Source: Desulfovibrionaceae bacterium (GTDB lineage Bacteria > Desulfobacterota > Desulfovibrionia > Desulfovibrionales > Desulfovibrionaceae). From it: DNA of 40,267 bases. Position 1 is the first letter of the stretch. Each line of letters starts with the position of its first letter. The notes below the pieces were generated by a model. That model made no database searches. It was not told the DNA's origin and saw only the letters and a list, made by a program, of their open reading frames with translations. Below, piece after piece: positions 648 through 38,091 of this stretch. The DNA lies in NCBI GenBank assembly GCA_015233395.1, contig JADFXV010000004.1, positions 42,501 to 82,767 of the forward strand. The letters run 5' to 3'. A program made the position numbers and the translations under genes.

Positions 648-690
648 GGGATTCCAAAGGGGGTCGCCCCTTTGGCCGCCGGAGGCGTTT
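648..690 (-). repeat. Family A palindromic repeat, copy 1
   Basis: The element reads, on the plus strand, GGGATTCCAAAGG, a short loop region, CCTTTGG and then CCGCCGGAGGCGTTTT. Its core is the inverted repeat CCAAAGGGG/CCCCTTTGG. In transcript sense (minus) it begins about 46 bases after the stop codon of the methyltransferase gene. Related copies lie at 12123-12163, 36505-36546 and 38050-38091, with a degenerate one at 15436-15475. Confidence 0.8.
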
Positions 691-735: not shown

Positions 736-1473
736 CTAGCCGGGCGAGGGTTCGGTGGAGAAGGCGGCGAGCGGGGTGAGCGGGCGTTCGCGAAAAAAGT
801 CCGCCCGTAGGGCGCAATAGGCCCCGAGCGGCGGATAAAACACCAGGCCGTTTATCTGGCTGAAGGGAAATTTGAATCGCCAGGTTCCGGGCGGCCCGGC
901 CAGAACCGAGCGCATGGCCAGGTCGGGGGAACCGAGTATGGGACGCGCCAGGGCGCGCATTTCCCAGGGCGAAAACCAGCGGGCGCTCGCCAACCGGCCG
1001 GGGGGCTTGCCGGGCCGGACCCTGCCGGCGCTGTAATAGTAGAACGAATAGCGGTTGAGAAAGCCGATCAGAAGTCCCTTGCGCGAAACCCGCGCCGCCT
1101 CCCGGACGACCGCGTCCGGATCGTCGCAGAATTCCAGCACCGACAGGAGCACCGCATAGTCGAACTGCTTGTCGTCAAACGGCAGGTGCGCCGCGTCGGC
1201 GAGATGCAGATCGACCGCGCCGCCCAGGCGCGCGCGGGCGGCTTCGAGCATCACCGGAGAATTGTCCACGGCCGAGACGTCAAAACCGTCGCGGTGGAGC
1301 ACGTTGGCGAAAATGCCCGGACCGCAGCCGATGTCGAGCAGCCGCTGGCCGCGCCTGGGCCAGCTCGACATCATCGACTCGATCAGCCGCACCTCCTGGG
1401 CAAAGGCGAAGCAACCCTCGGCGGTCTCAAACCACTGCTCATACCGCCGCGCGTCCGTCGCATCCCAGGCCAT
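736..1473 (-). CDS. Class I SAM-dependent methyltransferase
   Basis: This is a 245-residue protein beginning MAWDATDARRYEQWFE. The start ATG at 1473 is preceded by a GGAG site. Motif I for S-adenosylmethionine binding is LLDIGCGPG at residues 45-53, followed by an acidic residue at the end of strand 2 (SAVD, 67-70), a LADAAHLPF segment (91-99) and a motif IV-like YAVLLSVLEFCDDP. This layout is Methyltransf_11 (UbiE/BioC-like). The substrate cannot be read from the sequence. The C-terminal third, with RYSFYYYSAGR and a hydrophobic tail, is typical of small-molecule methyltransferases acting on lipids or quinone-like substrates, but that is a guess. It stands alone between repeat elements, downstream of livF on the same strand but 376 bases away. 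Confidence 0.85.
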   Translation of the reverse strand: MAWDATDARRYEQWFETAEGCFAFAQEVRLIESMMSSWPRRGQRLLDIGCGPGIFANVLHRDGFDVSAVDNSPVMLEAARARLGGAVDLHLADAAHLPFDDKQFDYAVLLSVLEFCDDPDAVVREAARVSRKGLLIGFLNRYSFYYYSAGRVRPGKPPGRLASARWFSPWEMRALARPILGSPDLAMRSVLAGPPGTWRFKFPFSQINGLVFYPPLGAYCALRADFFRERPLTPLAAFSTEPSPG

Positions 1474-12044: not shown

Positions 12045-12122
12045 CCTCTTCCAAGGGCCGCCGCGTTCAGGCGCCGCCCTGTCAGACTCGCGGAACGGCG
12101 GGACAACTCAGGCCAACGATGA

Positions 12123-12163
12123 GGGATTCCAAAGGGCGCAGCCCTTTGGCCGCCGGAGGCGTT
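12123..12163 (-). repeat. Family A palindromic repeat, copy 2
   Basis: GGGATTCCAAAGGGC, loop and GCCCTTTGG, then CCGCCGGAGGCG on the plus strand. In minus-strand transcript sense it starts 15 bases after the stop codon of the glycosidase-like gene, in the same orientation relative to the gene as copies 1, 3 and 4. Confidence 0.8.
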
Positions 12164-12177
12164 AATACACCACTCGT

Positions 12178-14190
12178 TTACCGGCCCGGCGCCAGGACCA
12201 GGGTGCGCCCCTGGCCGGCGAAAGCGGCGGCCGCGTCGCCGTCCTTGGGGTTGCCCGCGTAGACCATGGTCAGTTCGCGGTAGAAGCTGGTCGCTGCGGC
12301 GTTAAACCGCAGGCGCTGGCCTGGCTCCAGGCGGTCGAGCCCCAAAAGCGCCGCCGGAATGAAGCCTTGCACGGCCACGTGCGGCAGGGGCTTGTCCAGG
12401 GCGTGGATCAACTCGTCCGGCAAACGCTCCGGTTCGACTTCTCCCTTTTCCGCATGGTCCGCCCCCGTACCCGCCCCCTTGTCCGAACCCGCGTCCAAAC
12501 CGGTCGCATCGTAGAACCTGGCCCTGATCTGGAAGCGGTCGGGGTATTTCGCGTGGGGCTCCGGGATCAGGCGCGCCAGGAAATGCCGTTTTCGCCCCTC
12601 TATTTCGACGAACAGATGGAGCTGGTAGGCCTCGCTTCCGGGGAATTCGCCCGTATAGTCGAGCAGGCGCAGATCGGCGTAGTTCGAGGCCAGGTTCAGG
12701 AAATAAAGCCCCTCGGGCCGCCAGCACAGGTGCAGGTCGCCGAAGGGGACGTACGGGGCCGGGGCGCTAAACCCGGTCAGCCGGGTGGCGCGCTTGTCCC
12801 AGGCCGCGAGCGTTTCGCTTGCGGCCGCGATGGGACCGGCGGCCTCGGGTATGCGGACTACGGCCGCGAGGTCCGGTTTGTCGAAAGCGGCTTTGGCGTG
12901 GACGCCCTCCAGGGCGGGATTGACGCGGGCAAAGGCTTCGGTGAGCTCCTCGTAGGGCCGGTCGTCGATGTCCACCAGACCCATGTTGAAGTCCTCGCCG
13001 TCGCCCCGGCCGCCGGTCGGCTCGTCGGCGAACTGGAACCAGTGCGCCCCGACCACGTTCGGAAATCCGGCGAAATTTTCGATCGCCGCCGCCGCCCCGG
13101 CCGCGCGCGCTCGCTGGGTGGCTACGTGCATCAGGTGGCCGTTGTTGGCGTTGCCGCTGCGGTTTTCGTTCGCGGCGAAGAAAAATTCCGTGATGAGCGC
13201 CGGCAGTCCCGTCAGTTTTTCCAGCCCCTCGAAATAATAGGGCGCCACCCAGCCGTCCTCGTCGTCCACATTGTAGTTGGTCGAAATGGCGTCAACCAGC
13301 CCGCGCATGGCCAGGACGGCGTCCTGGTGGTAGTACAGGGGCAGCCGGTCGCCGAGGATGAGCTTGCCCGGGGCGCTTGCGCGCAGGGCGTCGTGGACCA
13401 ATTGGTAATAGCGCCTGGCGCACAGCGCGAGAAAGGCGTCGATCGTCTTGACGCCCCGGCCGCCCGGCCGCAGCTTGAGGCTCGCGCCGGTGCGGCGCAA
13501 ATCGGTAAAGGAGGCGATTCCCTCGCCGGGGACGAAATCCAGGAGCAATTTGTCGAAGCGGCCGCCGTACCGGTCGCGAAGCAGGTCCAGCAGGACCTTT
13601 TTGGTATAGCCCGGCCAGGAGTCGGCGAGATAATAGGCGAACAGCGGGGCGTTCCACCAGCCGACCTCGTTGTCCGTGAAATAGCCCAGGACCCGGGGAT
13701 CGTCCTTGTAGGGCGCGGTGAGCGCGGCGGCCGCTTCGCGGGTTTCGGCGGCCCGGATCGGGGCGAAGAGGTCAAACCAGTGCAGTTTGGCGTTGCGGCC
13801 GAGATCGAGTTCCGGGGTGATGGGCAGGGCCAGAGACGGGTCCGGGTCGGACCAGCCGCCCCGGGTGTTGAACCCCCAGGCGGTCAGACGGCCGAGCGCG
13901 GCCGCGCGCCAGGCGTCAAGCGCCGGGTAATAACGCGGCCAGTAATAGGCGCGCCCGTCCCTGGCCTTGGCGGTGTCCTGGCCGCCGTTGACCGTGTTCA
14001 CCCCGCGCGAGTAGAAGCGCACGCCGCTGTCCGTGGTCAGCCACCAGACGTTTCCCTCGCGATGCGTGGCAAAGCCGCCCGCTTGGCCGCTTGGGCCGGC
14101 CTGGGCCGAAGCGATAAGGCTCAGGCCGGCGAGCGCCGCCAGGGCGAACCAGGACAATGTCCGCAAAAACGGGACGTTGACGGAGGTCAC
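12178..14190 (-). CDS. Exported clan GH-A glycoside hydrolase-like protein
   Basis: The protein has 670 residues, with a signal peptide (hydrophobic core LSWFALAALAGLSLIASA, cleavage near AQAG at about residue 31). Segments such as GVRFYSRGVNTVNGG (56-70) and LTAWGFNTRGGWSD (102-115) are typical of the first strands of a (beta/alpha)8 barrel acting on polysaccharides. GYFTDNEVGWWN (169-180) fits the acid/base strand, with the N-E pair at 174-175, and ALITEFFF (331-338) fits the nucleophile strand, with E335. AHWFQFADEP follows as strand 8. A C-terminal beta-sandwich-like region follows. This resembles agarase or beta-galactosidase-type GH-A enzymes, but the exact family and substrate are unknown. 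It starts 9 bases after the glycosyltransferase stop, so the two genes form a unit. Confidence 0.7.
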   Translation of the reverse strand: MTSVNVPFLRTLSWFALAALAGLSLIASAQAGPSGQAGGFATHREGNVWWLTTDSGVRFYSRGVNTVNGGQDTAKARDGRAYYWPRYYPALDAWRAAALGRLTAWGFNTRGGWSDPDPSLALPITPELDLGRNAKLHWFDLFAPIRAAETREAAAALTAPYKDDPRVLGYFTDNEVGWWNAPLFAYYLADSWPGYTKKVLLDLLRDRYGGRFDKLLLDFVPGEGIASFTDLRRTGASLKLRPGGRGVKTIDAFLALCARRYYQLVHDALRASAPGKLILGDRLPLYYHQDAVLAMRGLVDAISTNYNVDDEDGWVAPYYFEGLEKLTGLPALITEFFFAANENRSGNANNGHLMHVATQRARAAGAAAAIENFAGFPNVVGAHWFQFADEPTGGRGDGEDFNMGLVDIDDRPYEELTEAFARVNPALEGVHAKAAFDKPDLAAVVRIPEAAGPIAAASETLAAWDKRATRLTGFSAPAPYVPFGDLHLCWRPEGLYFLNLASNYADLRLLDYTGEFPGSEAYQLHLFVEIEGRKRHFLARLIPEPHAKYPDRFQIRARFYDATGLDAGSDKGAGTGADHAEKGEVEPERLPDELIHALDKPLPHVAVQGFIPAALLGLDRLEPGQRLRFNAAATSFYRELTMVYAGNPKDGDAAAAFAGQGRTLVLAPGR

Positions 14191-15390: not shown

Positions 15391-15435
15391 GGGTGGTCCA
15401 TTCCTTCGGGATGGGGGGATGCCCGGGCATGGAAA

Positions 15436-15475
15436 GCCTCGGCGGCCAAAGGGCTTTGCCCGCTGCAATCCCATT
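15436..15475 (+). repeat. Family A palindromic repeat, degenerate copy
   Basis: GCCTCGGCGGCCAAAGGGC followed by TTTGCCCGCTGCAATCCC is recognisably the family A sequence, but with the second arm eroded (CCGCTGCAATC in place of CCTTTGGAATC). It lies between the divergent starts of the glycosyltransferase and the ABM-type gene, so unlike the other copies it is not behind a stop codon. Confidence 0.55.
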
Positions 15476-15610
15476 TGAGTTGCGAGGGCGAACATGCCCG
15501 CGCGATGCCGCTTCATATACCAGAGCCGGGCGGCTTGTGAAGTGTCCCGGATCGGTGTACAGCGTATGGTTCGCGTCCACGGCCAATGTACGTTCCGGAG
15601 GCTTGCCGCC

Positions 15611-36472: not shown

Positions 36473-36504
36473 GGCGGCGAGACGACGCGGGGTGGGGGAA
36501 GAAA

Positions 36505-36546
36505 GCCTCCGGCGGCCAAAGGGGCGGGGTCCCTTTGGAATCCCCA
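36505..36546 (+). repeat. Family A palindromic repeat, copy 3
   Basis: GCCTCCGGCGGCCAAAGGGG, loop and CCCTTTGGAATCCCC. It starts 32 bases after the stop codon of the ABC exporter gene and separates it from the adaptor gene. Confidence 0.8.
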
Positions 36547-38049: not shown

Positions 38050-38091
38050 CGCCTCCGGCGGCCAAAGGGGCAATGCCCCTTTGGAATCCCT
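38050..38091 (+). repeat. Family A palindromic repeat, copy 4
   Basis: CGCCTCCGGCGGCCAAAGGG followed by GCAATGCCCCTTTGGAATCCC; the arms CCAAAGGGGC/GCCCCTTTGG are perfect. It starts 16 bases after the stop codon of the adaptor gene, in the same orientation relative to the gene as copies 1-3. Confidence 0.85.

What the first reader, a model, noticed from the sequence alone, without database searches (positions are those of the whole stretch)
36505..36546. Family A repeats are locked in orientation just behind stop codons
Four copies (648-690, 12123-12163, 36505-36546, 38050-38091) lie 15-46 bases after a stop codon, and all four read GCCTCCGGCGGCCAAAGG...CCTTTGGAATCCC in the sense of the gene. 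Chance orientation would give that in one of eight cases or fewer. A fifth copy (15436-15475) at divergent starts is eroded. This suggests a 3'-end function such as RNA protection, a Rho-related signal or a protein site, or a targeted insertion preference.
Basis: seen in the sequence. Interest (0 to 1): 0.6.

Follow-up and report, generated by a model that had tools for sequence, protein, structure and literature searches.

The report
Mirror-tailed hairpin repeats behind stop codons
A short repeat scattered through this sulfate-reducer-like bacterium and its relatives sits unusually often, but not always, just behind genes, and its letters change together in the pattern expected of a strand that folds into a DNA triple helix, a known but poorly understood class of bacterial repeat.

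Summary
The four intact copies are real, all sense, 17-49 nt behind stops. "Locked" is wrong. Genome-wide (142 motif hits; 119 copies examined), same-direction gaps hold 38 sense and 23 antisense copies, and 14 copies lie in divergent gaps. A strong directional bias is real and replicates: the GCCTCCGGCGG end lies within 60 nt of a sense stop in 58 of 109 copies (28.7 expected), against 15 for the reverse arrangement. In eight other Desulfovibrionaceae genera it is 26 against 4 (8.8 expected each). The unexpected part is anatomy. The bases after the hairpin mirror its 3' arm (CCAAAGGG..CCCTTTGG-AATCCC; CCAAGGGG..-AACCCC; CCAGAGGA..-ACTCCT). Stem and tail change together across nine genera and, in independent hairpins, in other phyla. 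The changes fit the purine-motif triplex code on the complementary strand, whose wobble pairs also mark it as the folding strand. Closest known kind: bacterial intrastrand-triplex (PIT/BoxC) motifs. RAYT-type REP and intrinsic terminator were tested and not met. Why it hugs stops is unsolved; a DNA-level element with targeted or tolerated 3'-end placement fits better than RNA protection.

The parts
36505..36515 (+). 5' box GCCTCCGGCGG of the focal copy; GCC-TCC-GGC can form a 3-bp mini-hairpin (GCC-GGA-GGC on the complementary strand)
   Evidence: Sequence; the box varies as GCCTCCGGC / CCCTCCGGG, keeping pair 1-9.
36516..36538 (+). Main hairpin CCAAAGGG-gcggggt-CCCTTTGG of the focal copy
36539..36544 (+). 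Mirror tail AATCCC of the focal copy; on the - strand GGGATT, the proposed third (reverse-Hoogsteen) strand
   Evidence: Stem-tail coupling across 111 element types.
38051..38090 (+). Second short copy: box 38051-38061, hairpin 38062-38084, tail 38085-38090; 17 nt behind the HlyD-family gene stop
648..686 (-). Short copy: box 686-676, hairpin 675-654, tail 653-648; 49 nt behind the stop of the 736-1473(-) methyltransferase-like gene
12123..12160 (-). Core copy inside a MITE-like element: box 12160-12150, hairpin 12149-12129, tail 12128-12123; convergent gap
12065..12181 (-). Extent of the (5'-truncated) A2 MITE-like element around the 12123 core; full copies elsewhere are about 141 bp with terminal inverted repeats GAGGGACTTGCAAAA..TTTTGCAAGAGGCTC
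   Evidence: nhmmer match to model positions 16-132; TIR pairs.
15433..15482 (+). Eroded core copy in a divergent gap
   Evidence: Weak nhmmer match; sequence.

Best explanation
Family A is a dispersed DNA element built as box (mini-hairpin), purine/pyrimidine hairpin and mirror tail. When single-stranded it can fold as a class-I purine-motif intrastrand triplex, in which A-T pairs are met by A or T and G-C pairs by G. Shown: stem and tail change together by this code across genera and in unrelated hairpins; wobble pairs fall on that strand; placement is biased so that this strand is the template strand of the gene just upstream; hairpin loops are genome-specific, as expected if copies amplify within each genome. 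Inferred: the fold forms transiently in replication or transcription; placement behind stops reflects targeted or tolerated insertion with selection against the reverse arrangement (G-rich strand as coding strand at gene ends), not a required mRNA 3'-end signal.
For: Coupling over nine Desulfovibrionaceae genera (111 distinct element types): positions 4-8 follow the purine code in 92.3% against 77.9% (max 82.5%) when tails are shuffled within genomes; position 4 alone 96.4% against 65.9% (max 78.2%); the parallel pyrimidine code fits position 4 in only 44%. Position 4: 3'-arm T with tail A/T 54, with C 1; 3'-arm C with tail C 53, with A/T 3. Where the stem has A.C, the tail follows the 3' arm (14 types against 3). 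Coupled variants occur on one lineage-specific loop within one genome (loop CCTGAGG in G028, ACTTCGT in G008), so coupled changes recur. In other phyla: hairpins upstream of the searched one, not part of the search, have mean mirrored run 3.12 against 1.77 shuffled (max 2.37 in 5000); heteropurine hairpins outside the hits, mirrored runs of 6 or more: 24 against 4.7 (max 11). Strand: A.C 37: G.T 9, p = 6e-5. Placement. Published purine-motif intrastrand triplexes have the same order of parts and a 3-nt turn and fold stably in vitro (PMC4666352).
Against: No structural measurement. Excluding position 4 the wobble asymmetry is only 21:10 (p = 0.07). In short copies only 5-6 triads can form, and the base of the stem competes with the turn. 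Some arrays in other phyla seem to mirror a terminal C-G or T-A pair too, which the purine code does not predict. The related E. coli BoxC motif showed no in vivo DMS protection, no orientation bias and no terminator activity (PMC4666352). Old subfamilies could carry part of the coupling by descent. The mechanism of spread and the cause of the 3' placement are not shown.
Confidence: 0.55

Rival explanations
1. Double-stranded or folded protein site: a protein reads GGGA(T/G)TCCA(A/G)AGGG plus the GGA mini-hairpin, and paralogues with two specificities make the positions co-vary. The protein acts at gene ends.
For: The box is nearly invariant across genera while loops vary; coupling is mainly at positions 4 and 5; placement is directional.
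Against: Mirror (not inverted) symmetry is not what a dimeric protein reads. The rule also holds at positions 7-8 and in hairpins of other phyla with other sequences. No candidate protein was found.
Confidence: 0.2
2. RNA 3'-end element: the sense transcript folds behind the stop and protects mRNA or ends transcription (Rho-related or hairpin-dependent).
For: Sense copies begin 1-60 nt behind stops, convergent gaps are preferred, and the stem is strong.
Against: No U-tract; intrinsic terminators are equally common with and without the element (co 6/29 against 97/377; conv 13/26 against 50/164). Stem mismatches on the sense strand are mostly A.C, which RNA does not tolerate as it does G.U. 37 of 109 copies are antisense in same-direction gaps or divergent. 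The focal copy splits an ABC-HlyD pair. Published PIT elements had no terminator activity.
Confidence: 0.12
3. REP element mobilised by a RAYT (Y1 HUH) transposase.
For: Many short palindromic copies, mostly extragenic, at gene 3' ends; genome-specific amplification. Published REPs also cluster downstream of genes (PMC3733652).
Against: Six element-bearing genomes, among them the rich G008 and G028, have no Y1_Tnp gene at all. The two in this genome look IS200/IS605-like (one lies directly before a TnpB-like ORF) and have no element beside them. No GTAG or CGTC tag.
Confidence: 0.04
4. By-product: hairpins spread by MITE-like carriers or unknown events and survive mainly behind genes because insertion elsewhere is harmful; the mirror tail is compositional (runs of C).
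For: A 141-bp MITE-like carrier exists. Turnover is fast: the element behind the G024 orthologue is absent in its congener G081.
Against: Harm avoidance does not explain why only the box end hugs stops while the tail end is under-represented there (58 against 15). Shuffles within genomes keep composition and lose the coupling.
Confidence: 0.09

Closest known systems
Intrastrand-triplex motifs of bacteria (PIT elements / BoxC / TM-ECO; Hoyne and Maher; Holder et al. 2015, PMC4666352)
   Same: Dispersed, extragenic, up to hundreds of copies; hairpin whose purine arm is mirrored by an adjacent third-strand tract; 3-nt turn; purine-motif code G.G-C, A.A-T, T.A-T; fast turnover between close relatives.
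   Different: Here class I (third strand 5') instead of class II; shorter (5-6 triads against 9); a conserved GCCTCCGGCGG mini-hairpin box; directional placement behind stops where BoxC showed no strand bias; covariation of stem and third strand, a test not found in that paper.
REP / REPIN elements with RAYT transposases (PMC3733652, PMC3116915)
   Same: Short palindromic extragenic repeats, enriched downstream of genes and in convergent gaps.
   Different: No GTAG/CGTC tag; no RAYT-type enzyme in element-rich genomes; not arranged as inverted pairs by rule.
MITEs
   Same: The A2 subfamily: about 141 bp, 15-bp terminal inverted repeats, no coding capacity.
   Different: Only A2; the short elements have no terminal inverted repeats. 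No target duplication or parent transposase was established.
Intrinsic (Rho-independent) terminators
   Same: G+C-rich hairpin shortly behind a stop codon.
   Different: No U-tract; also antisense and divergent copies; no trade-off with real terminators.

Membership tests
Purine-motif intrastrand triplex (class I, PIT-like) | Consecutive third-strand, purine and pyrimidine tracts on one strand, with mirror relation of third strand and purine tract | tested here: met
   order third strand-purine-pyrimidine on the complementary strand.
Purine-motif intrastrand triplex (class I, PIT-like) | Covariation by the code G.G-C, A.A-T, T.A-T rather than the pyrimidine code | tested here: met
   92.3% against shuffled max 82.5%; the pyrimidine code gives 44% at position 4.
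Purine-motif intrastrand triplex (class I, PIT-like) | At least 6 triads with loops of 1-6 nt (ITxF criterion) | tested here: inconclusive
   Short copies reach 5-6 triads depending on whether position 3 counts; arrays in other phyla reach 6-7 mirrored positions.
Purine-motif intrastrand triplex (class I, PIT-like) | Folds as a triplex (NMR, CD) | not testable with these tools
   No structure measurement possible.
REP element | GTAG or CGTC tag at the hairpin foot | tested here: not met
   Consensus GAAGAA(A/C)-GCCTCCGGCGG-hairpin-AATCCC.
REP element | RAYT (Y1_Tnp, PF01797) in the genome, flanked by copies | tested here: not met
   None in G008, G028, G015, G012, G022, G009; own genome has only two, neither flanked by copies.
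Intrinsic terminator | Hairpin followed by a U-tract, in sense orientation at gene ends | tested here: not met
   Tail is AATCCC followed by variable bases; 37 of 109 copies are antisense in same-direction gaps or divergent.
MITE (A2 subfamily only) | Terminal inverted repeats and constant length | tested here: met
   Several copies of 138-142 bp with TIR GAGGGACTTGCAAAA / TTTTGCAAGAGGCTC.
MITE (A2 subfamily only) | Target-site duplication and a parent transposase with the same ends | tested here: inconclusive
   No consistent duplication and no autonomous element seen in the 1.53 Mb scanned.
Known structured RNA (Rfam) | Match to a curated family | tested here: not met
   Only a tRNA in the window at gathering scores.

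The most novel reading that the evidence does not exclude
Evolution maintains a DNA triple helix in bacterial chromosomes: third strand and duplex co-vary by the reverse-Hoogsteen code in many genera and several phyla, the third-strand match being kept even when the Watson-Crick partner is only a wobble, and in Desulfovibrionaceae the element is placed so that the triplex-forming strand is the template strand immediately behind a gene.
Probability: 0.35. Interest if true: 0.8.

Novelty: new variant of a known kind. Interest (0 to 1): 0.58.

Why it matters
Intrastrand-triplex motifs have been counted in thousands of genomes, but whether cells keep the triplex, rather than just a purine run, has stayed open; footprinting of E. 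coli BoxC in vivo was negative (PMC4666352). Covariation between third strand and stem is evolutionary evidence of the kind that established RNA structures, and this family offers many natural variants on common backgrounds with which to test it. The directional placement behind stops gives a concrete function to test. It also corrects a tempting reading of such repeats as RNA terminators.

Tried and rejected
Orientation lock: rejected. RAYT/REP: rejected. Intrinsic terminator, or co-occurrence with one: no association. Rfam family: none. Parallel pyrimidine triplex, as sense RNA or DNA: fits worse. Vertical inheritance of positions: three of four genes with an element here that had an orthologue in the fetched loci also had one there, against 6 of 32 without, but the loci were picked for having elements and a congener pair differs, so this is left open. 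A generic genome scan for mirrored tails in this genome was only weakly informative because of C-runs, and its genic class was spoiled by masked N. Placement in other phyla could not be judged because simple ORF calls in high-GC loci put 58 of 123 hits inside spurious ORFs. Papers: no description of this Desulfovibrionaceae repeat was found in the searches run.

Full report
Observation. The window lies in contig C103 of a 3.37-Mb draft genome (98.9% complete) of the family that includes Desulfovibrio-type sulfate reducers (named family members). Each continues as hairpin and AATCCC. With gene calls of my own they start 49, 17, 32 and 17 nt behind stops, all in the sense of the gene.

Genome-wide test. 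The genome holds 142 copies with up to two mismatches and none of the reversed control. I fetched 1.53 Mb and found 119 copies. They fall into A1, a short element; A2, the same core in the middle of a 141-bp MITE-like element with 15-bp terminal inverted repeats; and A3, arrays of several hairpins.

Orientation and place. Among 109 copies with both neighbours known, 38 are sense and 23 antisense in same-direction gaps, 34 lie in convergent and 14 in divergent gaps. Orientation is therefore not locked. But the box end lies within 60 nt of a sense stop in 58 copies against 28.7 expected when copies are placed at random in the same gaps, and the reverse arrangement is rarer than expected (15). 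All 30 A1 copies with a sense gene upstream start 3-53 nt behind its stop. In eight other genera the same measure gives 26 against 4, 8.8 expected each, with 16:13 in same-direction gaps. The bias is thus directional and conserved in the family, but incomplete. A counter-example is an antisense copy 7 nt behind a stop in G081.

Anatomy. The box GCCTCCGGC has the variant CCCTCCGGG, which keeps a 3-bp mini-hairpin. The main hairpin varies in stem and loop between genomes. The six bases after it are not free. They mirror the 3' arm: CCCTTTGG-AATCCC, CCCCTTGG-AACCCC, CCCTCTGG-ACTCCC, TCCTTTGG-AATCCT, TCCTCTGG-ACTCCT, CTCTCTGG-ACTCTC. No copying process makes mirror repeats, so the link asks for a structural or recognition cause.

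Test of the link. With 111 distinct types from nine genomes, positions 4-8 obey the rule 'A-T pair: A or T; G-C pair: G' (read on the complementary strand) in 92.3% of cases. Shuffling tails among elements of the same genome gives 77.9%, never above 82.5%. This is the purine-motif, antiparallel triplex code. The pyrimidine code expected if the written strand were the folding one fails at position 4 (44%). Where the stem carries A.C on the written strand, which is G.T wobble on the other, the tail follows the 3' arm (14 types against 3). Overall A.C exceeds G.T 37:9; without position 4 it is 21:10, p = 0.07. The same loop carries several stem-tail types in one genome (CCTGAGG in G028, ACTTCGT in G008), so coupled changes seem to have happened repeatedly.

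Beyond the family. A scan of one genome per species finds the A-containing hairpins also in Ruminococcus and other Oscillospiraceae, Roseomonas, Acidiphilium, Methylobacterium, Lentisphaerae and others, mostly in arrays without the box. The hairpins just upstream of those hits were not part of the search; their tails mirror their own arms more than shuffled tails do (mean run 3.12 against 1.77). Heteropurine hairpins elsewhere in these loci do so too (24 runs of six or more against 4.7).

Known relatives. Bacterial intrastrand-triplex motifs (PIT elements, BoxC, TM-ECO) have this architecture; ours would be class I, third strand first. For TM-ECO the fold is proven in vitro, was not protected in vivo, and showed neither strand bias nor terminator activity. 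Covariation is not mentioned in that paper. So the kind is known; the class, the box, the directional place and the covariation are new in what I could search.

Mechanism. Best supported: a DNA element whose G-rich strand can fold as a triplex when single-stranded, spread within genomes by an unknown route, and found preferentially with that strand as template strand behind a gene. The rest is inference: either insertion is directed to gene ends, or copies that put the G-rich strand on the coding side there are selected against. RNA protection or termination is unlikely: no U-tract, no relation to terminators, wobble on the wrong strand, and the focal copy lies between a C39-peptidase ABC exporter gene and its HlyD partner, adjacent genes in G031 without an element. 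A RAYT transposase is excluded in most element-bearing genomes tested. Positions turn over quickly: the G024 orthologue of the exporter gene carries its own, differently sequenced element 13 nt behind its stop, while its congener G081 has none.

Limits. Draft assembly, home-made gene calls, 45% of the genome; regions were partly chosen for holding exact copies, which does not bias orientation. Shuffles do not remove shared ancestry of subfamilies. No structural data.

Noticed in passing
window 12065-12181 (-); full copies e.g. C75:1317-1454, C44:33939-34079 of this genome: A 141-bp MITE-like element with imperfect 15-bp terminal inverted repeats carries the family A core in its middle, with conserved flanks GTGGTTTTTTAAC and GCATCATTTTCATGAGTTGCTC.
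   Followed up: partly
window 36505-36544 and 38051-38090: Two copies bracket a HlyD gene next to a C39-peptidase ABC exporter gene; in G031 the two genes adjoin without an element (L341).
   Followed up: partly
A3 copies of this genome, e.g. C35:1422 offset 99, C92 offset 106558: Arrays of three different hairpins joined by (A)CCCC linkers, each linker mirroring the arm before it: CCCTCCGGGGG-CCAAGGGG..-ATCCCC-ACCGGGGGC..-ACCCCC-GTCAGGGG...
   Followed up: partly
L199-L313 (Ruminococcus, Oscillospiraceae, Roseomonas, Methylobacterium and others): Closely similar mirror-tailed hairpin arrays occur in distant phyla in patchy fashion; transfer or convergence is unknown.
   Followed up: partly
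several stems in L205, L209, L281: The mirror seems to include a terminal T-A pair (tail ends in A), and C-G pairs (tail ends in G), which the purine triplex code does not predict.
   Followed up: no
upstream of A1 copies, e.g. window 36494-36504: A purine-rich GGGGAAGAA(A/C) stretch precedes the box in this genome, and other purine-rich stretches do in other genera.
   Followed up: no
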